Assembly (NCBI RefSeq): GCF_003054225.1
Contig: NZ_QBKQ01000001.1
Coordinates: 930,001-994,000, forward strand
Source: Christiangramia gaetbulicola
Lineage (GTDB): Bacteria > Bacteroidota > Bacteroidia > Flavobacteriales > Flavobacteriaceae
Length of the DNA stretch: 64,000 nucleotides
Direction of reading: 5' to 3'
Within the stretch, counting starts at the first letter, position 1; each line of letters begins with the position of its first letter. The position numbers and the translations under genes are program-made. Below are positions 16,445-55,262 of this stretch, piece after piece. The notes under the pieces are model-generated. The model ran no database searches, had not been told where the DNA came from, and saw only the letters and a program-made list of their open reading frames with translations.

Positions 16445-16477
16445 ATTAAATATATTTATAAGTCTAAATAATTAGTT

Positions 16478-16840
16478 ATGAAAAGCATACAGAAACTATC
16501 CTTAATATTTGCCTGCCTTCTTTCGGTTCTTATTTTCTCCTGTAAGGATGAAGAAAAAACAGCCGATAAAGAAGAAGCAGTTACCGAAACACCTTCTGCT
16601 GAAGAAATGAAGGAAAAGATGACCAAAACGGCTGAATTAAAATACAATCCTGCCCATGGAGAGGAAGGACATCGCTGCGAACTTCCGGTGGGAGCGCCAC
16701 TTGAAAGTGCAAACGCTTCTTCTACTCCGCAGTTAAAGACATCACCGGTGAGAATGCAAAGTGCAACTCCAAGGATCAATCCTCCACACGGGGAGCCTGG
16801 ACATGACTGTAGCGTAGCCGTGGGTGCAGAGCTCAAATAA
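16478..16840 (+). CDS. Lipoprotein with two HGExGHxC repeats
   Basis: 120 aa. The signal peptide ends LIFSC-KDE (Cys22), so it is a lipoprotein. After an acidic spacer come two near-identical units: NPAHGEEGHRCELPVGAPL (57-75) and NPPHGEPGHDCSVAVGAEL (101-119). Each keeps two His and one Cys, consistent with metal or heme-type ligand sites (inference). I have seen similar motifs in hypothetical flavobacterial lipoproteins but know no function. Confidence 0.8.
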   Translation: MKSIQKLSLIFACLLSVLIFSCKDEEKTADKEEAVTETPSAEEMKEKMTKTAELKYNPAHGEEGHRCELPVGAPLESANASSTPQLKTSPVRMQSATPRINPPHGEPGHDCSVAVGAELK

Positions 16841-43403: not shown

Positions 43404-44027
43404 TTACAGTAGAGTAACTTTTCCCGTAGAGATAGAGTAAACTCCCCCTACGATCTTAATTTCTCCATTTTCTTCCATCTCCTTCAGGATAGGACTTTTT
43501 TCCCTTATCCTGTTCATGGTAAGCTTTACATTGTTCTCCACCACATCGGCAACAAAAGAGTTGTTCTTTGAACTTCTTTCGCCATCGGTACTGGTTGCTT
43601 CTACTGCAGGCTTAATATTGCTGAGCAGGTGAGTAATATTCCCAAGCTCTACATTGTCACAGGCAGCTTTTACAGCACCACATCCCTCATGACCAAGGAC
43701 CATTACCAGTTTACTACCGGCAACCTTACATGAATACTCCATACTCCCAAGGATATCGGTATTCTCAAAATTACCGGCCACACGGGCTACGAAAATATCC
43801 CCGATCCCTTGATCAAAAACGGTTTCCACAGCAACCCTTGAATCTATACAGCCAAGAACTACCGCCTGTGGCCATTGTCCTCCACTGGTCTTTTCGATCT
43901 GTGAAGTAAAATCCCTTTCATACATTTTATTGTCTGTAAATCTTTTGTTACCGGCCATAAGATCCATTAAAACGGCATCTGGGGTTAGCTTATCCTGTTT
44001 TTCTTTATTTATTATCTCTTTGATCAT
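43404..44027 (-). CDS. Beta-class carbonic anhydrase
   Basis: 207 aa, cytosolic. Zinc ligands Cys60, His113 and Cys116 and the Asp62-Arg64 dyad (CIDSR, GHEGCG) are all present. It interconverts CO2 and bicarbonate. The SulP transporter gene lies 64 bases upstream on the same strand, so the pair probably takes up and uses bicarbonate. Confidence 0.95.
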   Translation of the reverse strand: MIKEIINKEKQDKLTPDAVLMDLMAGNKRFTDNKMYERDFTSQIEKTSGGQWPQAVVLGCIDSRVAVETVFDQGIGDIFVARVAGNFENTDILGSMEYSCKVAGSKLVMVLGHEGCGAVKAACDNVELGNITHLLSNIKPAVEATSTDGERSSKNNSFVADVVENNVKLTMNRIREKSPILKEMEENGEIKIVGGVYSISTGKVTLL

Positions 44028-44091
44028 ATTATTCTATTTAATTAATAATTCCAGAAAGAAAAAAGCCTTTCCGGGTATTTCCGGTCTAAAT

Positions 44092-45669
44092 TTAAGCTGG
44101 TTTTTTATCTAATTCAAAAAATTCCAGGTAACTCTCCGGGTTTTCGACAGTTCCTCTTTCAGAAACGATCTTAATATCAATGTTCTTTTCTTCTGCTTTG
44201 ATCTTGAAATCATCCAGGATATCGATAATATCCCTGTCCAGATATTTGGTTTTGGTTACATCCATTATCAGGTAAGAATCGTTCTCAAGATTGTTGAGCT
44301 CTTTCAGGATCGCTCCTTTATTGATGAAAGTAACCTCTTCTGCCAACCTCATCTTTACGGTCTTACCGCCATTTTCAACATTCTCTATATGCAGGAAGTA
44401 AGAATTCTGGTAACTCTTAATAAGGATCACCACGATTCCAACTACAAGACCAAGGCTTATTCCTATTAATAGATCCCCAAATATGATACCTATAATAGTA
44501 ACCATGAATGGAACGAATTGCTTCCATCCAGCTTGATACATCTGTACAAATAATGCCGGTTTGGCAAGTTTGTATCCAACAAGGAAAAGGATCGCTGCCA
44601 GTACTGAAAGCGGAATATAATTAAGGATATTTGGAATGATAACCACAGAAATCAATAGCAGGAATCCGTGCAGGATCGCAGACATTTTCGTTTGTCCTCC
44701 AGACTGGATATTCGCAGAACTTCTTACGATCACCTGTGTAATTGGTAATCCACCAACCATACCTGACATTAAGTTACCTGTACCCTGTGCGAAAAGCTCA
44801 CGGTTGGTTGGGGTGGTTCTTTTGTGCGGATCCAGTTTATCTGTTGCCTCTACACATAAAAGAGTTTCCAGGCTGGCTACCAGAGCAATGGTAAAACCTG
44901 TGATCCAGATCTCCATAGTCCCTATCATTTCAAAAGAAGGCAGGGTAAACTGACCTACAAATGAATCGAAACTATCTGGTACCGGAACATTTACAAGATG
45001 ATCTGCAGAAATTCCAAAGGTTTCAGAATCCCTGGTCAATAGATAATATATAATACCAACAGCTACAGCTACCAAAGGCCCCTGCACCAGTTTAAAAAAT
45101 TTACCTTTTTTAGAAAGTACGGCCTCCCATAAAATAAGGATGGTCATACCTATGATCGCGATAAGAGTAGCTCCCGGGCTAATATTATTCAGCGCATTAA
45201 TTAACTCTGAAAAGGTATTCTCGCCATCAACCTGGAAAAAAGCCCAGTCCCCCTGAGGATCTCCATCGTAACCAAAAAAGTGAGGGATCTGTTTCAGGAT
45301 AATAATGATCCCGATACCTGTAAGCATTCCCTTAATTACACTATTCGGAAAATAATATCCAATGATACCTGCTTTTAGCAATCCGAAAACGATCTGGATA
45401 GCACCACCAATCACTACAGCCAGCAACAGGTTCTCATATCCTAATTTTGAAATTGCGGCAAGCACGATCGCAGCAAGTCCTGCCGCCGGGCCACTAACTC
45501 CAAGACTGGAACCACTAATGGCACCTACTACGATACCTCCAATTATACCGGCTATTAATCCTGAAAACAAGGGAGCTCCACTGGCTAATGCGATTCCTAA
45601 ACACAAAGGAATAGCAACAAAAAACACGACAATACTTGCCGGAAAATCTTTATTAAGATGTTTGAACAT
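44092..45669 (-). CDS. SulP-family anion transporter with STAS domain
   Basis: 525 aa. A SulP membrane domain of about 12-14 helices (starts DFPASIVVFFVAIPLCLGIALASGAP) is followed by a C-terminal STAS domain (about 420-525; YLIMDVTKTKYLDRDIIDIL). Family members carry sulfate, bicarbonate or other anions. Pairing with carbonic anhydrase favours bicarbonate uptake (inference). Confidence 0.93.
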   Translation of the reverse strand: MFKHLNKDFPASIVVFFVAIPLCLGIALASGAPLFSGLIAGIIGGIVVGAISGSSLGVSGPAAGLAAIVLAAISKLGYENLLLAVVIGGAIQIVFGLLKAGIIGYYFPNSVIKGMLTGIGIIIILKQIPHFFGYDGDPQGDWAFFQVDGENTFSELINALNNISPGATLIAIIGMTILILWEAVLSKKGKFFKLVQGPLVAVAVGIIYYLLTRDSETFGISADHLVNVPVPDSFDSFVGQFTLPSFEMIGTMEIWITGFTIALVASLETLLCVEATDKLDPHKRTTPTNRELFAQGTGNLMSGMVGGLPITQVIVRSSANIQSGGQTKMSAILHGFLLLISVVIIPNILNYIPLSVLAAILFLVGYKLAKPALFVQMYQAGWKQFVPFMVTIIGIIFGDLLIGISLGLVVGIVVILIKSYQNSYFLHIENVENGGKTVKMRLAEEVTFINKGAILKELNNLENDSYLIMDVTKTKYLDRDIIDILDDFKIKAEEKNIDIKIVSERGTVENPESYLEFFELDKKPA

Positions 45670-45802: not shown

Positions 45803-46093
45803 TTATGCTAATTTTGGAGGGGGAGAGGACACGGTAAGACATACGTCATAAACGTTCTCTTTATAATAATGCCCGTCTGTTTTTCTAATCTGAAGAAAAT
45901 GTATGCTTTCATAGTTAGAGACCATCTCTTCGATATTATATTCAAATGAGATCTGGTTCTTTGATGAGCTCTCTTCCTCGTTCACGTTATACGCAATAGA
46001 GATATCAACATTTCTATCTATCAAAGCGATTACGCTTGGTGTAAACAGAAAGCTGATAAACAAAAAAGCAAGTATATAAGCAAATTTCTTCAC
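45803..46093 (-). CDS. Small exported protein ending in SPPPKLA
   Basis: 96 aa from GTG at 46093 (VKKFAYILAFLF...); the longer open frame up to 46240 would run into batE and add unlikely residues. A signal-peptide-like helix (4-22) is followed by a polar domain and the tail HYYKENVYDVCLTVSSPPPKLA. Similar tails occur in small flavobacterial proteins, but no function is known to me. It lies downstream of batE and upstream of the SulP gene. Confidence 0.6.
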   Translation of the reverse strand: MKKFAYILAFLFISFLFTPSVIALIDRNVDISIAYNVNEEESSSKNQISFEYNIEEMVSNYESIHFLQIRKTDGHYYKENVYDVCLTVSSPPPKLA

Positions 46094-46170
46094 GGTATCA
46101 AAAATAGGGTTTTTCCTGAACAACAAAAAAGTTCGGGTAATCCCAATTAAGAAATAAATATAAAGATTTC

Positions 46171-46920
46171 TTATAGCTTCTTGATAACCGAGTTTTTTAC
46201 CCAGCCCTGAGCGCCGTTGGCAAGCTCTATTCTGGACCACTCCTGGTAATCTTCCAGCACCTTGGCTTTGGTACCTTCATGAAGTTCAAAACTTGCATCT
46301 CCCCTTAGGTTTGGCTCGTCTCTCACCTCTACTTCTTCTTCAAAGATAATGGCGTATTGATTATCCTGAACATAAGATTGTTGCTGAAAAGCAAACACCA
46401 CTGAAAGTATGCATAACAACACACTTAGCATGGCACCGCCGAAAAGAAGTCTTTTATAAAGCGGGGTATAAGAGAAATAATATAGCAGGAAGAATACTAC
46501 AAAAAGTACGGAGAATACAATGGCGAATATCGCCCAGCTGGAATAACTATACGCAGAGATCAATCCATTGAACCACTGTTCAAAACCGGTCTGCTCTACC
46601 GCTTCAATATCATCTATAGCCATATTTCGGGCAAATTCAATATTGTTTTGAATATCCTCATCTGTAGGAGCCAGCTGCAATGCTTTTTCGAAATAATAGA
46701 TGCTTGGCGCCACCTGGTTCAACTTATAATGGGCATTCCCCAGGTTATAATATAGTTCAGCAGAAGCCTCACCGTTATCCAGGATCTCTTCATAAACGCG
46801 AATCGCATTTTGATAATCCCCGTTCTGGTAGGCCGAATTAGCTTCGTCAAATAGCTTCTCGTTCTGGCAGAAACCAGTAAAGCTGCATATTATCGTAAAT
46901 ATCAGGATCAACTTTCTCAT
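46171..46920 (-). CDS. batE: BatE, TPR and SH3-like membrane protein
   Basis: 249 aa from ATG at 46920 (a GTG one codon earlier overlaps the batD stop). Signal peptide (FTGFCQ-NE), two or more TPR units (23-100), two transmembrane helices (about 132-180) and a C-terminal SH3-like domain (VEVRDEPNLRGDASFELHEGTKAKV, WVKNSVI). It is the last gene of the Bat operon, whose products are linked to aerotolerance and envelope stress in Bacteroides-type bacteria. Confidence 0.87.
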   Translation of the reverse strand: MRKLILIFTIICSFTGFCQNEKLFDEANSAYQNGDYQNAIRVYEEILDNGEASAELYYNLGNAHYKLNQVAPSIYYFEKALQLAPTDEDIQNNIEFARNMAIDDIEAVEQTGFEQWFNGLISAYSYSSWAIFAIVFSVLFVVFFLLYYFSYTPLYKRLLFGGAMLSVLLCILSVVFAFQQQSYVQDNQYAIIFEEEVEVRDEPNLRGDASFELHEGTKAKVLEDYQEWSRIELANGAQGWVKNSVIKKL

Positions 46921-46922
46921 CA

Positions 46923-48680
46923 CTATAATTGTTTATCAAGAGTTGAAATTACACTTACGGCCTTATCATAGTCATGTTGCATGGTATCTGAAGATGCCGG
47001 GGTATACCTGGCATATTCGCAACTTTCCAGTAAAGAAATGAATTCAGATCTCGTTTCCTGGTCTACACCTTTTTCACTAAGCAATGCCTGTATCCTTTCC
47101 TTGCTCATTTCGCTGGTCTGGATACTTAGTTTTGCTTTCAGATAATTATGCATGGAACGTTCGAGTGACAAATAGAATTCCTTTTGATCTCCAAGATTTC
47201 TTTTAGCTTCAGAAAGATATTTTCGGGCCAGTTTATCTGCTTTTCTCATCCTGTTCCCTCTTACATCATTCGCTCTCTGCTCCCTTTTCTTTCCGAATAA
47301 GATGAACAATGGAATTGCCGCCAGCGGAAGCATTAATGCGCCCCAGAATGCTGCCGATCCCAGAAAATCACTGCTATCTATAGGCTTAAGGTTTGTATTA
47401 AGTTTAATAAACCTGAATTGACTACCATCTAAAGCCACCGCCTGTTTATTCACCCCAGACAAACCTGAAGGTTCATTTCCTGCCAGTGGTCCTCGATTCA
47501 CATTGATAAGGATCTCTTCAGAGGTCTTTGTCTTATAGGTTTCTGTAGAAGGATCAAAATAGGAAAACGATAGTGCCGGCAACGGATATTTCCCTTTTTG
47601 TGTAGGCACCACGGTATAGGTTTGTGAAATACTTCCCTGCATTCCGTTGAGATTGGTATTCACATTCTCCACGCGTTCCGGGTCATACATTTCTAACGAG
47701 GACGGAGCGGTTAATTCCGGAAGATCAAATAATTTCAGATTCCCGTTTCCTCTTACTTCTACTTTCGCCTGAAGGCTCTCACCCGCATTCAGCTCATTTT
47801 TATTTGTGGTAACCTTAAAATCGAATTTACCCACAGCCCCGGTGAAATCTGCTGGTTTCCCGGCAGGCAGTGGCTTCACATTGATCTTTTTATTATTGGC
47901 GGCGACCGTTTTATTCACGGTCTTATAGATCCTGCTTCAAAAAATATCTCTTCGCTCACTTGGAACATCTACCGCGATAGAAAGAGTAAGAGGCTCTATA
48001 TTTAGTTCACCTGTTTTCTGTGGATAGAGAATGGTCTTTCTTAAAACCACATATCTATAAGGCTCCCCGTCATATTCCCCGTTTTCAACTCTTAATTGCT
48101 GGATGTCGATACTCTGGCTCCAGAAATCGTTGTACTTAGGACTATCGAGTTCACGCCAGTTGCTCACGCTAACACGCGGACTAACATATAGCTTATAAAC
48201 TACGGTAATGGCTTCGTTAAGATATGGATTAGCCTTGGAGATCTCAGCAACCAGGTGCAGGTTATCTTCTGCGATCATTTCGGTATTATCCCCATCTGTA
48301 GGTTTATCTACTGCTGAAGTGATCTCTACCTTGAGAGGCGATGTTTTATAAGTCTTATCATCTATGATTATTTCTGCCTGGCCAATGGTAAGTTTACCAA
48401 TTTTCTTGGGCTGAAGGTAAAAACTATAGGTTTTGGAATATTCCATCCTTCCATTCAGGATGCTCGTGCTTATCTTCTGGTTAGGACCTCCAACCACGGT
48501 GAATCCATCGAAAGACGGCGGATTGAAGTTGTCGCCATCCTCGTTCATTTCGAAATCTACTCTTAGCCGTTCATTAATTCCCAGCTTTTCTCTGCTCACC
48601 TTCGCTTCAAACCTCACCTGGGCCTGAATGATCCCGGAAGCACACAATAAAAAACTTAAAATTAAATACTTCAATTTCAT
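46923..48680 (-). pseudogene. batD: batD interrupted by an in-frame TGA
   Basis: An otherwise complete BatD (oxygen-tolerance family, about 585 codons). The ATG at 48680 is preceded by AGGAGG 7 bases upstream. Signal peptide (IIQAQ-V), beta-sandwich domains, one transmembrane helix and a C-terminal cytosolic helical domain are all recognisable. Codon 248 (47939-47937) is TGA: SERRDIF-stop-SRIYKTVNKTV. The frame does not change, so one substitution (GGA to TGA) explains it; glycine is what I expect there. The downstream half could restart at GTG 47918 but would lack a signal peptide. Could be a real null, sequencing error, or read-through. Confidence 0.85.
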
Positions 48681-48728
48681 CTTTTTCCTCCTATAGCTCA
48701 ATTCTTTGTCTCGTAAACATCAAAAATG

Positions 48729-49601
48729 TTACCAGTCTTTGTCAGTTTTCGTTTTGACATCTTTCGCTTTCTCTGCGTTTATTTTATCCTGAACTTTTTT
48801 CTCTTCGTTATTCATGGCCTCCAGCAAGCTCTGGATTTGTTGTGGAGATAACTGTCCCTGGGTAGGTCGCTGCTGTTGCTGCTTTTCCTTGTCTCCTTCT
48901 TTAGGATCTTTTTTCTCTCCCTCACCCTGATCTTTCTGCTTATCCTCGTTTTGATCGCCTTCTTTTTTATCTTTTTCGTTCTCTCCTTCGTCCTGAGGTT
49001 TCTGATCCTCTTTTTCATCTTCACCGCCTTCACCATCCTGGTTCTGGTCCTTGTTCTGCTGATCCTGGTTCTGGTCCTTATTATTTTCGTCCTGCTTGTT
49101 CTGATCCTGATTACCTTCCTGATTTTGCTGTTCTTTCTCCAGCATTTTTTTGGCTAAAGCAAGATTATATCTGGTCTCTTCATCTGTAGGATCGTTGCGC
49201 AAAGCATTTTTAAAGGCATCTACCGCTCCCTGGTAATTCTTTTGCTGCATGTAAGAATTTCCGAGGTTATGATAAATACGATGCTTTTCGGTTTTTGTTG
49301 CAGCAATTTCTGCGGCTGCTTTCAGCCTTTCTTCAGCGTTTAATGATTTCTCCTTGACATAATACAGGTTCCCCATATTATATTTAGCGGTAGTGTTATT
49401 AGGATCTTTTGCGATCGCCTTTCTATAGGAAGCTTCTGCACTGGCAAAATCATTTTCAGATAAAGCCTCCTGTGCTTCAGCAATAAATCTATTGGATTCT
49501 TTAGTGAGCTTTTCAGGCTTTTCCTGGGCATTCACCTCAAGGAAACCAAAAAGCAGCACGAGACCGGTTAAAATGACATTCTGACATTTATTTTGATGCA
49601 T
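48729..49601 (-). CDS. batC: BatC, TPR lipid-free exported protein with charged tail
   Basis: 290 aa from ATG at 49601, which has AGGAG at proper spacing; an upstream start at 49628 adds nine residues. Signal peptide (LEVNAQ-EK), three TPR-like units (about 28-145), then a long low-complexity Gln/Asp/Glu/Lys tail (about 155-250) and a final helix (LSPQQIQSLLEAMNNEEKKVQDK). It overlaps batB by 14 bases. Confidence 0.85.
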   Translation of the reverse strand: MHQNKCQNVILTGLVLLFGFLEVNAQEKPEKLTKESNRFIAEAQEALSENDFASAEASYRKAIAKDPNNTTAKYNMGNLYYVKEKSLNAEERLKAAAEIAATKTEKHRIYHNLGNSYMQQKNYQGAVDAFKNALRNDPTDEETRYNLALAKKMLEKEQQNQEGNQDQNKQDENNKDQNQDQQNKDQNQDGEGGEDEKEDQKPQDEGENEKDKKEGDQNEDKQKDQGEGEKKDPKEGDKEKQQQQRPTQGQLSPQQIQSLLEAMNNEEKKVQDKINAEKAKDVKTKTDKDW

Positions 49602-50652
49602 CTTTCGCTCCTTTCTTCTTTCGTTCATTAAAAAGATTCAGTTTACGCAGCCAGGCCGTACTACGCTCAAGTACAAAGATATCAAGAAATAATAATGCCA
49701 AAGCTATTCCCAGGAACAACTGAAAATGAGATTTAAAATCGGCAAACTGTTTTGCCTCAAATTCGGTCTTCTCGATATTCTGTAATTCTTCGATCACTTT
49801 ATCCACAACGTCACTAGTGACATTCCCCTGGATATAACTGCCTTCTGCAGCATCTGCGATCTCCTTGAGAGTTTGCGGATTCAGTTTGGTAATAACGGTT
49901 TCTCCCTGGTTATCTTTCTTATAATTCTGAATTACCCCGTTTCGCTTAATAGGAATAGGACCTCCTTTTTCGGTTCCCACTCCAATGGTGAATATTCGAA
50001 TGCCCATTTCTGAAGCCTGCTCCGTAATTTCCTCCACATTCCCTTCATGATCTTCACCGTCACTTAGGATGAACAATACGCGATTGGTTTGCTGCTCGTC
50101 ATCATAATAGGTAGTTGCCAGTTCGATCGCATCACCAATGGCAGTTCCCTGAGAGGAGATCATATCTGTATTTAATGCCTGAAGGAACATCCTTGCGGCC
50201 GAATAATCGGTAGTAATTGGTAATTGCGGATAGGCGCCACCGGCATAGGCAATGATCCCAACCCGGTCACTTCCAAGGTTACTAAGGATCTGGCTTACCA
50301 GTTGCTTGGACTTTTCAATTCTGCTTGGCGCGATATCTTCAGCATCCATACTTTTAGAGACATCTATCGCAAAAACAATATCTACTCCCTCCCTTTTTAC
50401 GGTCTTCAGTTTGGTTCCCATCTTAGGATTTACGAGGGCTACGACCAGACTGGCCATCGCCAGCAATACCAGGATCAGTTTAATGACCGGCTTGGAACGC
50501 GAACGGTTAGGCGCGAGGTGTTTTAAAAGATTGCTACTGGCAAATTTCTTCCGGGTCCTGTTCTGCCAGAAAACAAAAATAAGGAACAACAGGACGATCA
50601 CCGGGATCACCAGCAATAACCAAAACCATATTTTTTCTTCCAGTACAAACAT
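49588..50652 (-). CDS. batB: BatB, VWA-domain membrane protein
   Basis: 354 aa. N-terminal helices (8-30, 58-75), a VWA domain with MIDAS DVSKS (97-101) and SDGEDH, and a C-terminal helix (about 315-333). Together with BatA it forms the paired VWA proteins of the Bat cluster, acting at the periplasmic face. Confidence 0.93.
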   Translation of the reverse strand: MFVLEEKIWFWLLLVIPVIVLLFLIFVFWQNRTRKKFASSNLLKHLAPNRSRSKPVIKLILVLLAMASLVVALVNPKMGTKLKTVKREGVDIVFAIDVSKSMDAEDIAPSRIEKSKQLVSQILSNLGSDRVGIIAYAGGAYPQLPITTDYSAARMFLQALNTDMISSQGTAIGDAIELATTYYDDEQQTNRVLFILSDGEDHEGNVEEITEQASEMGIRIFTIGVGTEKGGPIPIKRNGVIQNYKKDNQGETVITKLNPQTLKEIADAAEGSYIQGNVTSDVVDKVIEELQNIEKTEFEAKQFADFKSHFQLFLGIALALLFLDIFVLERSTAWLRKLNLFNERKKKGAKDASK

Positions 50653-50653
50653 T

Positions 50654-51658
50654 CTATATAAAACTTCTGAATAAGGTGAGTCTTAATAATATCTCGAATA
50701 ATAGCAGAATTCCGGCTAACAGGATCAATGGCCTGTATTTCTCATCATAATTATAATAACGAAATTCTTCAATTTCGGTCTTTTCAAGTGAATCGATCTC
50801 GTTATAGATCTCCTCAAGCTTTTCATTATCTGTTGCCCTGAAATATTTTCCTCCGGTAGAAGCGGCGATATCTTTTAAAAGCTCTTCATCGATCTCCACC
50901 TGAACCCGACCAAACTGTATCCTTCCGCCGGGTGACATGGCAATTGGTGAAAGAGCCATCCCGTTACTACCTACTCCAATGGTATAAACCTTGATCCCGA
51001 ATTCAACCGCAAGCTCACTGGCGGTATTGGGATCTATAAATCCTGAATTATTAACTCCATCGGTAAGCAGAATGATGACCTTACTTTCGGCTTCACTGTC
51101 TTTAAGCCTGTTCACCGCGGTAGCTAGGCCCGATCCTATAGCCGTACCGTTTTCCAGTACATTGTTATATTCAATATCTTCCAGGGCATTAAGAACGATC
51201 GTTTTATCGCTGGTTATAGGAGTTTTAGTGAAACTCTCGCCGGCATAAGCCACCAGCCCGATACGATCTCCCGGCCTGTCTTTTACGAATTCTTCAGCCA
51301 CCGCCTTTAAAGCATCCAGCCGGTTTGGCTGCAGGTCTCTAGCCAGCATACTGGCTGAGACATCTATCGCCATTACGATATCTATCCCCTGTGAACTGCT
51401 GGTTTCTGTAGAAACATCCACTGTTCTCGGCCTGGCCATGGCTACAATTATAAAGGAAAGGGCCAGTAAACGAAGCAGGAAAAGTACAGGTCTTAATTTT
51501 GGTAAAAATCCCGACTTAACCTTGAATCCTTTGGTAGTGGATATTTTTAATTCGGCAGTTTGCTTATTTCGTTTCCACACATACCAGGCTATTGCCAGTG
51601 GAAGCAGCAGGAACAACCAGAAAAATTCCGGGTTTTCAAATGTGAAATTGGCAAACAT
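50654..51658 (-). CDS. batA: BatA, VWA-domain membrane protein
   Basis: 334 aa. Two N-terminal helices (about 10-28 and 57-75), a VWA domain with MIDAS DVSAS (99-103) and LTDGVNN, and a C-terminal helix. It is one base before batB and overlaps the upstream gene by one base. Confidence 0.94.
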   Translation of the reverse strand: MFANFTFENPEFFWLFLLLPLAIAWYVWKRNKQTAELKISTTKGFKVKSGFLPKLRPVLFLLRLLALSFIIVAMARPRTVDVSTETSSSQGIDIVMAIDVSASMLARDLQPNRLDALKAVAEEFVKDRPGDRIGLVAYAGESFTKTPITSDKTIVLNALEDIEYNNVLENGTAIGSGLATAVNRLKDSEAESKVIILLTDGVNNSGFIDPNTASELAVEFGIKVYTIGVGSNGMALSPIAMSPGGRIQFGRVQVEIDEELLKDIAASTGGKYFRATDNEKLEEIYNEIDSLEKTEIEEFRYYNYDEKYRPLILLAGILLLFEILLRLTLFRSFI

Positions 51659-53307
51659 TATTCGTTCAGGTTATTAATTTCTACAGAGTTAATTATACGC
51701 TGGGTGATCTCCTTAGCATACTGATCATTTTCATTGTAAATGACCATGATCTGCTCAAAACCTCCTTTTTCAGCAAAGTTCAGGATCTCGTATTCATTCG
51801 GGATCGATTCACCGGTCACAGGGTTTTCAGCTTCAAGGGTACCAAAGATCTTAGTTCCCTTGGTGCCGTTCACTGTGGTGAAATCCTCCTGTTTCATTAT
51901 TATATTCCGTGCCCCCTGGGCTTCAAGATTGGTGTAAATTCCATCGATGGCCTTTTTAGCATCGAAATTCACTTCACCCTTGAATTTGATAGTGCTCAGG
52001 GTCACATAGAAATTACTCAGCAGGCTACCATAGATAAAGGTCTCGGAACCTACCATCATTTGCTGCACATCCTGTGGCATTTCTATCTCTCCCCGCACAA
52101 GAACTTCAGGCGTGGTTACTGCTACCGATGGATTACCGTACTCACTTCTAATCCATTCTCCTTCTAGCAATTCCTTTGTTGGATGACCTAAATAAGTATC
52201 CTTCACGTAGGTATATCCTTTTGTGGCAATAAGCGCGGTCACACCTATAATAATCACTAGGACCCCGGCTAGAACACCAAGAATAATGCGACGCTTCTTT
52301 CTTTTCCTGGCCTGCTCTTCACGGAAAGCTTCATCCTGAAGCAATTCTTCCTCGGTAGGCTCTGGTACGGATGCCCTAAGGTCATCGATAATATGTTGTG
52401 TTTTTGAACGATCCTCCTTGGCCGTGATCACATCTGGTTTGGATCTCGCAAATTTGGCCAGATCGGCACGTCTTAAGATCTTTTCAAAATCCCTGATGGT
52501 CTCATCGGTAAGATTCAGTTTCCCCTGGCGTTTCTGATCTTCCAGGTAAAGGATCAATTCGTTCGTGGTTCTTTCCAGACCGTGATCATAGATCTTCCTG
52601 TCCAGGTATTTACGCACAGCAAAACTCAGCTGAGAATAATATTCTTTAATTTCCCGCTTTTCTAAATATTGTGCCTGGTCCAGTTTCTGTAATTCAGCCA
52701 TAGCTTCTTCATATGGCGGTAATTCAAATTCCTCTGCATCTTTTTTCTTTTTCCTGATGATCAAAAATGCCACCAGGCCGGCAATAAGAAAAATTCCCAG
52801 TAACCACAATAGCCAATCGGGAATCCGGAAACCCGGGGGAACCTCAACAGATGGTTTTATAGGATACAGTTTTTGCTTGGTGGTATCTACCACCACATCA
52901 TTCACCTCAACGGCGATAGAATCTGTAAAATAGGAACTGCTTGCAATTATAACTTCCTGGCTTGGGATAACATATTTCCCGGAGTCGAATTTAGTAAGGA
53001 AATATTCTTTCAATAGCCTGTAATTGCCATTTTCACGCAGCGTATCTGCATCCAGGGATTCCACTAATTCTAATGGAGAAAAGGTCTCGCCTTCAGGAAA
53101 AACCACCAGGTCTTCGGGATCTGTCTTAACCTTGATCTGGTATTTGATCTGCTCCCCGATCTTGATCGTTGTGGAGTCTATACTCGCTGAAACCTGTGAC
53201 TGGGCTTCCGCAGTATTAACCAATAATAATGAGCATATAAAAAACAGAAATCCCAGGCCACCTGAGATATTTGTAGTTGAATATGTGTTTTTAAGGTTTC
53301 TAAACAT
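51658..53307 (-). CDS. BatD-like/DUF4381-like membrane protein of the MoxR-Bat operon
   Basis: 549 aa. Signal peptide (NTAEAQ-S), an N-terminal beta-sandwich like BatD (QVSASIDSTTIKIGEQIKYQIKV), a transmembrane helix (about 168-187), a helical cytosolic region (about 200-320), a second helix (about 342-362) and a C-terminal domain. The combination is typical of the gene between DUF58 and batA. Exact family naming is uncertain. Confidence 0.75.
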   Translation of the reverse strand: MFRNLKNTYSTTNISGGLGFLFFICSLLLVNTAEAQSQVSASIDSTTIKIGEQIKYQIKVKTDPEDLVVFPEGETFSPLELVESLDADTLRENGNYRLLKEYFLTKFDSGKYVIPSQEVIIASSSYFTDSIAVEVNDVVVDTTKQKLYPIKPSVEVPPGFRIPDWLLWLLGIFLIAGLVAFLIIRKKKKDAEEFELPPYEEAMAELQKLDQAQYLEKREIKEYYSQLSFAVRKYLDRKIYDHGLERTTNELILYLEDQKRQGKLNLTDETIRDFEKILRRADLAKFARSKPDVITAKEDRSKTQHIIDDLRASVPEPTEEELLQDEAFREEQARKRKKRRIILGVLAGVLVIIIGVTALIATKGYTYVKDTYLGHPTKELLEGEWIRSEYGNPSVAVTTPEVLVRGEIEMPQDVQQMMVGSETFIYGSLLSNFYVTLSTIKFKGEVNFDAKKAIDGIYTNLEAQGARNIIMKQEDFTTVNGTKGTKIFGTLEAENPVTGESIPNEYEILNFAEKGGFEQIMVIYNENDQYAKEITQRIINSVEINNLNE

Positions 53308-53314
53308 TTTTCTT

Positions 53315-54181
53315 TTAAGCTCTTCTTTTAAAATAGCCCAGTAATTTTTTCACATAGCTTTCATCGGTCCGGTTGCTAATAGTCCCAGCACCGCTTACCG
53401 AAAAACTCTGGTGAAAGTAGTTCACGCGGTCATGGAAATATTTTGAATAAGACCTGCGTACCGCCTTGGAACCAGTATCTACAGTAATATATTCCCCGGT
53501 TTCCTCATCCTGCATTTGCACCATGCCCAGGTTAGGTATGGTTTGTTCCATCTTATCAAAAACCCTGATGCCGGTAAGGTCATGTTTTCCTGCCACGATC
53601 TTCAAGGTATGCTGGTAATCATCTGCCATAAAATCTGAAAGCAGAAAAACAATCGCTTTCTTTTTCATGACGTTAGAAAGGTATTTCAAAGCTCCGGCAA
53701 TATCGGTGTTCTTACCTTCAGGTTTAAATTCCAGTAATTCCCTGATGATACGCAGCACATGCGACCTTCCTTTTTTAGGCGGAATATATAATTCTATACG
53801 GTCTGAGAACATCATCAAACCTATCTTATCGTTATTCTTGGTTGCTGAAAAAGCTAGAGTCGCAGCGATCTCTGTAATAACCTCTTTTTTGAACTGTTCC
53901 TGGGTCCCGAACATTTCTGAACCCGAAACATCTACCATCAACATCATGGTTAGCTCGCGCTCTTCTTCAAATACCTTTACAAATGGTTCATTATAACGGG
54001 CGGTCACGTTCCAGTCTATACTTCTAACGTCATCCCCAAACTGGTACTGTCTAACCTCACTAAAGGTCATACCCCTTCCTTTAAAAGTAGAATGATACTC
54101 GCCCCCAAAGACATGATCGCTCAGTCTGCGGGTCTTGATCTCTATCTTTCTTACTTTTTTAAGGAGTTCCTTTGTATCCAT
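53315..54181 (-). CDS. DUF58 protein
   Basis: 288 aa from ATG at 54181 (MDTKELLKKVRKIEIKTRR); an alternative start ten codons upstream is less likely. The signature FSEVRQYQFGDDVRSIDWNVTARYNEPFVK is complete, with a VWA-like fold (VDVSGSEMF). It is the standard partner of MoxR ATPases. Confidence 0.94.
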   Translation of the reverse strand: MDTKELLKKVRKIEIKTRRLSDHVFGGEYHSTFKGRGMTFSEVRQYQFGDDVRSIDWNVTARYNEPFVKVFEEERELTMMLMVDVSGSEMFGTQEQFKKEVITEIAATLAFSATKNNDKIGLMMFSDRIELYIPPKKGRSHVLRIIRELLEFKPEGKNTDIAGALKYLSNVMKKKAIVFLLSDFMADDYQHTLKIVAGKHDLTGIRVFDKMEQTIPNLGMVQMQDEETGEYITVDTGSKAVRRSYSKYFHDRVNYFHQSFSVSGAGTISNRTDESYVKKLLGYFKRRA

Positions 54182-54257
54182 TTTGTTCAATAAACAATAA
54201 ACAAGGATCAAAAAACACTAGCTTATTTGATCATTGGGAATTGATAATTGCTAATTG

Positions 54258-55262
54258 TTACGGTACTTCGATCTCGTTCACGATCTTATTGATAAGATCT
54301 TCTGAAGTAATGTTTTCGGCTTCGGCTTCATAGGTAATACCAATTCTGTGACGCAGCACATCATGCACTACTGCACGAACATCCTCTGGCACCACATAAC
54401 CTCTTCGTTTAATAAAGGCGTAGCATTTTGAAGCCACGGCAAGGTTGATACTACCACGAGGAGAAGCTCCAAAGCTGATCAAAGGCTTTATGTCTTCAAG
54501 ATTATATTTTTCAGGAGTACGGGTTGCAAAAACGATATCCAGGATATATTTCTCGATCTTTTCATCCATATACACATCCCTTACCGCACTTTGTGCTCTC
54601 AGGATCTGTTCAAGATCTACCACCTGATTCACTTTTTCGAATCCACCTTTAAGGTTGGCGCGAATAATCAGCTGTTCTTCGGCCATCATAGGATAATCTA
54701 TTACTGTTTTGAGCATAAATCTATCCACCTGTGCTTCAGGTAAAGGATAAGTTCCTTCCTGTTCCACCGGGTTTTGCGTGGCCATTACCAGAAATGGCTT
54801 ATCAAGGATAAAAGTTTCGTCTCCAATGGTCACTTGCTTTTCCTGCATAGCTTCCAGCAAAGCCGATTGCACCTTAGCCGGCGCACGGTTGATCTCATCT
54901 GCCAACACGAAATTTGCGAAGATCGGCCCTTTCTTTATACTGAAATCGTTAACCTTCATATTGTAGATCATGGTACCAACAACATCTGCCGGTAAAAGAT
55001 CTGGGGTGAACTGAATACGGCTGAAGCTTCCATGCACAGCCTGGGCGAGGGTATTGATCGCCAGTGTTTTCGCCAGCCCAGGAACACCTTCTAAAAGTAT
55101 ATGTCCCTGACCTAAAAGGCCTATCAGCAGGCGCTCTACCATGTGCTTCTGGCCTACGATCACCTTATTCATTTCGCGGGTGAGCAAGTCTACAAAAGCA
55201 CTTTCCTTTTCAATTTTCTCGTTAATACTGGCAATATCAACAGATGAATTGTCTTCCATCAT
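54258..55262 (-). CDS. MoxR-family AAA+ ATPase
   Basis: 334 aa. Walker A GVPGLAKT (59-66), Walker B FVLADEINRA, sensor and lid regions (ISFGASPRGSINLA) are intact. First gene of the leftward operon; MoxR acts as a chaperone-like ATPase with VWA proteins encoded downstream. Confidence 0.96.
   Translation of the reverse strand: MMEDNSSVDIASINEKIEKESAFVDLLTREMNKVIVGQKHMVERLLIGLLGQGHILLEGVPGLAKTLAINTLAQAVHGSFSRIQFTPDLLPADVVGTMIYNMKVNDFSIKKGPIFANFVLADEINRAPAKVQSALLEAMQEKQVTIGDETFILDKPFLVMATQNPVEQEGTYPLPEAQVDRFMLKTVIDYPMMAEEQLIIRANLKGGFEKVNQVVDLEQILRAQSAVRDVYMDEKIEKYILDIVFATRTPEKYNLEDIKPLISFGASPRGSINLAVASKCYAFIKRRGYVVPEDVRAVVHDVLRHRIGITYEAEAENITSEDLINKIVNEIEVP

What the first reader, a model, noticed from the sequence alone, without database searches (positions are those of the whole stretch)
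47937..47939. batD split by one in-frame TGA codon in an otherwise intact Bat operon
The two open frames 46923-47918 and 47937-48701 lie in the same frame and join as RRDIF-stop-SRIYKTVNKTV. Only a glycine codon (GGA) turned TGA is needed to explain this. All other genes of the moxR-batE operon are intact, and both batD halves keep family-like sequence with no drift, which argues for a recent mutation, a read-through event or a sequencing error rather than an old pseudogene.
Basis: partly seen in the sequence, partly recalled or inferred. Interest (0 to 1): 0.72.

Follow-up and report, generated by a model that had tools for sequence, protein, structure and literature searches.

The report
Recent stop codon in BatD gene
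One gene of a marine bacterium's Bat operon carries a single stop codon that none of the relatives examined has, so it is most likely a fresh, ordinary loss-of-function mutation, or possibly a base-call error, and not a new kind of gene.

Summary
A TGA at window 47937-47939 (minus strand) cuts batD of a Christiangramia/Gramella-type marine Flavobacteriaceae into two same-frame pieces; the neighbouring operon genes are uninterrupted. All 23 other genus genomes held have one uninterrupted batD. Glycine stands at the site in 31 of 31 relatives and 23 of 23 genus loci. In a 299-genome family sample only the window's genome shows a stop among the 150 matches printed. The downstream part shows no relaxed selection: dN/dS 0.039 to the nearest relative, 0 of 181 invariant positions changed, 3 polarised changes on the window branch against 3 on the sister branch. 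So the stop is very young, or an error. By inspection it is the only true mid-gene break among 139 compared ORFs. Recoding has no support: tRNA-Sec and SelB below cut-off, no TGA-reading anticodon among 41 tRNAs, RF2 present. The break falls inside an Ig-like domain, so two working half-proteins are unlikely. A recent nonsense mutation is most likely; a base-call error cannot be excluded without reads. Ordinary.

The parts
47937..47939 (-). In-frame TGA at codon 248 of batD; relatives carry a glycine codon here
47940..48680 (-). batD upstream part (247 codons from the likely ATG): signal-peptide-like start (inferred), Ig-like domain 1 and most of domain 2; PF13584 at 3.8e-27
46923..47936 (-). 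batD downstream part: last strands of domain 2, third Ig-like domain, hydrophobic helix (membrane anchor, inferred), helical C-terminal domain; PF13584 at 2.5e-15; under purifying selection
46171..46923 (-). batE (TPR and SH3-like matches; gene name assigned from operon order, recalled), no internal stop
48729..49628 (-). batC (TPR matches; name from operon order, recalled), no internal stop
49588..50652 (-). batB (VWA and BatA N-terminal domain), no internal stop
50654..51658 (-). batA (VWA and BatA N-terminal domain), no internal stop
51658..53307 (-). 549-aa BatD-like protein; PF13584 match of 21.1 bits, below the cut-off of 24.1; no internal stop
53315..54211 (-). 298-aa protein, called DUF58 from operon order (recalled; NCBIfam gave nothing and Pfam was not run on it), no internal stop
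54258..55262 (-). MoxR-type AAA+ ATPase (only weak AAA+ matches in NCBIfam; name from operon order, recalled), no internal stop

Best explanation
A single-base nonsense change arose very recently in the sequenced strain's batD. Inferred consequence: translation stops at codon 248, giving an exported fragment that lacks the end of Ig-like domain 2, domain 3, the membrane anchor and the C-terminal helices; the downstream piece, if restarted at all, would have no signal peptide. The strain would be a batD loss-of-function mutant with the rest of the operon intact. Shown here: the stop, its uniqueness among the relatives examined, the lack of decay, the predicted domain anatomy. Inferred: that the base is real in the cell and that BatD function is lost.
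For: 23 of 23 other genus genomes have full-length batD without a stop. Glycine in 31 of 31 relatives (read; one search counts 30 by fixed offset, L028 is shifted and was read by eye) and in 23 of 23 genus loci; 15 assemblies are in both sets. G248 is invariant in 15 aligned BatD. No drift: dN/dS 0.039 over 337 codons to G018, 0 of 181 positions invariant in the other 17 rows changed; 3 against 3 polarised changes, 12 ambiguous. If all 3 were neutral the stop would be younger than about 2.6% of the window branch (rough). Only true mid-gene break, by inspection, among 139 of 402 G018 ORFs that had hits, 48,188 aa aligned. One full batD match only in the genome. A parallel for losing batD alone: PMC12718326 (section 5 read) reports batD transposon mutants in B. 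theta, while other genes of that locus had low insertion density.
Against: No reads and no second strain of the species were available, so the base itself is unconfirmed. Every genus member held keeps the gene whole, so loss should be disfavoured in nature; passages of PMC3557215 recall that a bat insertion in Bacteroides lowered aerotolerance. Lack of decay fits a sequencing error equally well.
Confidence: 0.6

Rival explanations
1. Sequencing or assembly error: the cell has an intact batD and the record has a miscalled base. The site abuts a run of T, where errors cluster on some platforms (recalled).
For: No decay at all downstream; the stop sits directly after a T run; no relative listed shares it.
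Against: In the part sampled the assembly looks clean: no other true mid-gene stop or frameshift among 139 compared ORFs, by inspection; completeness 99.99%, 8 contigs. A homopolymer length error alone would shift the frame, and the frame is kept.
Confidence: 0.3
2. Functional read-through or recoding of the TGA, so that full-length BatD is still made, perhaps at a low, regulated level.
For: The downstream part keeps purifying selection. In-frame stops with downstream dN/dS below 1 are reported, and TGA is called a leaky stop (PMC7918605, parts 1 and 2 of 6 read). The 97 bases after the stop fold slightly better than shuffles (z -1.85, 9 of 200 shuffles as good).
Against: No relative listed has the stop. 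tRNA-Sec and SelB stay below cut-off; no TGA-reading anticodon among 41 tRNAs (150 of 243 first-look candidates were scored); RF2 is present with its own TGA frameshift site. The hairpin is not special to the window: of its six pairs four are identical in all 17 rows, 16 of them without a stop, and the other two form in 7 and 10 of 17; 40 of 500 shuffles reach the share of paired cells.
Confidence: 0.08
3. A stable split of BatD into two separate working proteins.
For: Both parts have PF13584 matches; a GTG lies just downstream of the stop.
Against: No relative examined has two genes. The break falls between strands 232-244 and 250-260 of Ig-like domain 2. The downstream part has no signal peptide ahead of its exported domain (inferred). 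The GTG is an ordinary codon position, also GTG in 5 of 31 relatives.
Confidence: 0.02

Closest known systems
BatD of the Bacteroides aerotolerance (Bat) operon, Pfam PF13584
   Same: Domain matches in both parts; strings of Ig-like domains and a hydrophobic helix in the model of an intact orthologue; neighbours with VWA/BatA and TPR domains
   Different: Interrupted at codon 248 in this genome, in none of the other genomes listed
Young nonsense pseudogenes and short-lived in-frame stops of bacteria (PMC7918605, parts 1 and 2 of 6 read)
   Same: One stop, family-like sequence on both sides, low dN/dS downstream; that paper finds such stops mostly short-lived
   Different: The paper's large-scale study used stops shared by two or more species, and its dN/dS values were fairly high; this stop is seen in one genome
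B. theta batD transposon mutants enriched under the B. fragilis T6SS toxin Bte3 (PMC12718326, section 5 read)
   Same: batD lost while other genes of the operon stay
   Different: Laboratory screen in a gut species; no such selection is known for this marine strain

Membership tests
BatD (PF13584) | BatD DUF11-like domain over Pfam's cut-off | tested here: met
   95.2 and 57.3 bits against a cut-off of 24.1 in the two parts
BatD (PF13584) | Position in a bat operon beside VWA/BatA-domain proteins | tested here: met
BatD (PF13584) | One continuous protein from exported start to membrane helix | tested here: not met
   Interrupted at codon 248 here; continuous in relatives
Nonsense pseudogene | In-frame stop absent from orthologues | tested here: met
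Nonsense pseudogene | Relaxed selection after the stop | tested here: not met
   expected if the stop is very young or an error
Selenocysteine recoding | tRNA-Sec and SelB in the genome | tested here: not met
   Best tRNA-Sec 41.3 bits against 47; best SelB 189.9 against 242.25
Conserved stop-codon read-through | Stop kept at the same place in relatives | tested here: not met
   23 of 23 without; 149 other rows printed, none with a stop
Conserved stop-codon read-through | Full-length product made | not testable with these tools
   Needs proteomics or a blot

The most novel reading that the evidence does not exclude
Loss of BatD alone was selected in this marine strain, for example as escape from a contact-delivered toxin or another envelope-targeting agent that needs BatD, as batD mutants are enriched under Bte3 attack in B. 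theta; a leaky TGA might keep a trace of full-length protein.
Probability: 0.05. Interest if true: 0.5.

Novelty: already known. Interest (0 to 1): 0.14.

Why it matters
If the stop is real, the strain is a natural batD loss-of-function mutant with the remaining operon intact, a handy comparator for what BatD does; PMC12718326 (section 5) says the mechanism of the operon's products is not known. If it is an error, it is only a correction to one record.

Tried and rejected
A codon-usage scan of 462,526 bases of own-genome sequence (window plus 20 stretches) for other split genes failed its positive control: it did not pick out batD. Nothing is drawn from it about other breaks.

Frameshift by slippage on the T run was tested in a script: one base fewer or one more runs into a stop within eight codons, so slippage cannot rescue the frame.

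Other break signals of the homology check: seven besides batD were looked at in detail. Six are stops or an indel in the first part of a predicted ORF, ahead of the likely real start (ref->own in L106, L107, L109; own->ref L106 2717-4090, L106 7417-8463, L108 5882-6307); of these L106 7417-8463 is the least certain. The seventh (window 16459-16836, minus) overlaps an ORF of about the same size on the plus strand and is taken as a shadow frame. The remaining signals were judged alone: the double hits at L106 53-781 and L139 15219-17198 (similar copies in a row), and a second, partial hit of L149 31727-34702 with 4 stops beside an unbroken main hit (taken as a worn duplicate). The window 45806-46240 signal lies ahead of a small gene's likely start. 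The shorter ORFs flagged (100 aa and up) were taken as shadow frames from their overlap with longer ORFs, without a test of each.

One search, which used the longer upstream query from the TTG at 48701, listed one stop each in G019 and G007; with the query from the ATG neither has one.

A downstream recoding hairpin was considered and rejected. A search of solved structures with the BatD profile gave 0 matches at E up to 0.1. The fold search gave generic strings of Ig-like domains, with query-normalised TM-scores of 0.18 or less in the 50 rows listed. Paper searches on BatD/MoxR/Flavobacter and on Bte3/BatD gave one paper each.

Full report
What is there. On the minus strand the frame of batD runs from the ATG at 48680 to 46923 and is interrupted once, by TGA at 47937-47939. 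Both parts match Pfam BatD on their own. The operon around it (moxR-like ATPase, a 298-aa protein, a BatD-like 549-aa protein, batA, batB, batC, batE; several names are from operon order and recalled) has no other internal stop. By its nearest named relatives the organism is a Christiangramia/Gramella-type marine Flavobacteriaceae: the best named hit is C. echinicola at 88% over the downstream part.

Relatives. The search of genome contigs gave 31 loci. All 31 have an open batD frame through the site and glycine at it (in one search, 30 of 31 by fixed offset, while L028 is shifted and reads glycine by eye). In the genus, 24 of 24 genomes have a match; the window's own has 1 TGA inside the full-length match and the other 23 have none. 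Their 23 loci all read glycine. In a sample of 299 family genomes (own and one other genus member included) 296 have a match; 150 rows are printed (my count by eye), and of those only G000 shows a stop. Matches not printed were not examined. The glycine is invariant in a 15-sequence BatD alignment.

Age. Against the nearest genome, G018, the downstream part has dN/dS 0.039 over 337 codons with dS 0.76. The upstream part has 0.009, and the nine other genes tested give 0.012 to 0.041. None of 181 positions invariant in the other 17 rows has changed in the window. Polarised with 16 outgroup rows, amino-acid changes are 3 on the window branch and 3 on the G018 branch, with 12 ambiguous. If the three were all neutral, the one-sided 95% bound puts the stop in the last 2.6% or so of the window branch, taking that branch as half of the pairwise dS. 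This speaks strongly against an old pseudogene. It does not separate a young mutation from an error or from read-through.

Assembly quality. ORFs of 120 aa or more from the G018 stretches were compared with the window and 20 stretches of the same genome: 139 of 402 had a hit at 60% identity or more, 48,188 aa aligned. By inspection of the flagged cases batD is the only true mid-gene break. The other 263 had no such hit and say nothing; only 7 of 21 own pieces (the window included) aligned over more than 1,500 bases with what was fetched of G018. So the genome was sampled, not surveyed.

Recoding. Forty-one tRNA matches were found (150 of 243 first-look candidates were scored), and none has an anticodon that reads TGA. 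The best tRNA-Sec score is 41.3 against a cut-off of 47. The best SelB score is 189.9 against 242.25, in a 398-aa frame of elongation-factor size. RF2 is present at 495 bits. That match is listed with one TAA inside; one search shows that this TAA lies in the later frame ahead of a CTTTGA site behind AGGAGG, where a short frame from an ATG ends. I recall this as the classical autoregulatory frameshift of RF2, which implies that TGA is read as a stop in this organism. The sequence after the batD stop folds slightly better than shuffles (z -1.85, 9 of 200 as good), but four of the hairpin's six pairs are identical in all 17 rows, 16 of them without a stop, and the other two form in 7 and 10 of 17.

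Anatomy of the break. The model of the intact C. echinicola orthologue (mean pLDDT 79.4, pTM 0.45; local structure usable, overall arrangement uncertain) places glycine 248 in a loop between strands 232-244 and 250-260 of what I read as the second Ig-like domain; a third set of strands spans about 279-394, a long hydrophobic helix starts at 443 and C-terminal helices follow. Truncation there removes the end of domain 2 and everything after it, and a downstream product would lack the signal peptide. Independent function of the pieces is therefore unlikely (inference; no signal-peptide or membrane predictor was run).

Literature. PMC7918605 (parts 1 and 2 of 6 read) reports in-frame stops with downstream dN/dS below 1 as widespread and mostly short-lived, which fits this case. 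PMC3557215 (passages) found no morphology, growth or oxidative-stress phenotype for a batABD deletion in Leptospira biflexa, and recalls in its background that a bat insertion in Bacteroides reduced aerotolerance. PMC12718326 (section 5 read) reports batD as the gene most enriched for mutations in B. theta under the toxin Bte3, with low insertion density in the other genes of that locus. A batD-only loss is therefore plausible in a living strain, though not shown to be harmless.

Verdict. I put a real recent mutation at about 0.6, an error at about 0.3 and read-through at about 0.08. As biology it is an ordinary event.

Noticed in passing
L153 (G000:C2:100366-101388, minus strand): prfB (RF2) of the window's genome keeps a CTTTGA site behind AGGAGG at the end of a short frame, the classical programmed frameshift arrangement as recalled.
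   Followed up: partly
window 45803-46240, minus strand: A small conserved gene follows batE. Its likely start lies inside the listed ORF, because the nearest relative has stops ahead of it and 89% identity over 116 residues. No NCBIfam match.
   Followed up: partly
L057 (G015:C1:2233347-2233709, minus strand): One genus member has a second, weak BatD-like match (25% identity, 551-aa frame), perhaps its copy of the BatD-like gene upstream in the operon.
   Followed up: no
window 43404-45669, minus strand: A carbonic anhydrase gene (over NCBIfam's cut-off) and a SulP-type transporter gene (matches below cut-off) lie side by side next to the bat operon, perhaps a bicarbonate uptake pair.
   Followed up: no
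window 46171-48680, minus strand, against G018: Synonymous divergence from G018 is higher in batD and batE (dS 0.76-1.14) than in the six operon genes upstream (0.43-0.66) and the SulP gene downstream (0.53), which may mark an old recombination.
   Followed up: no
L111 10418-10780, minus strand: A stretch of the own genome resembles the end of a 992-aa G018 protein at 72% identity with 4 stops, beside the unbroken main copy; perhaps a worn duplicate.
   Followed up: no
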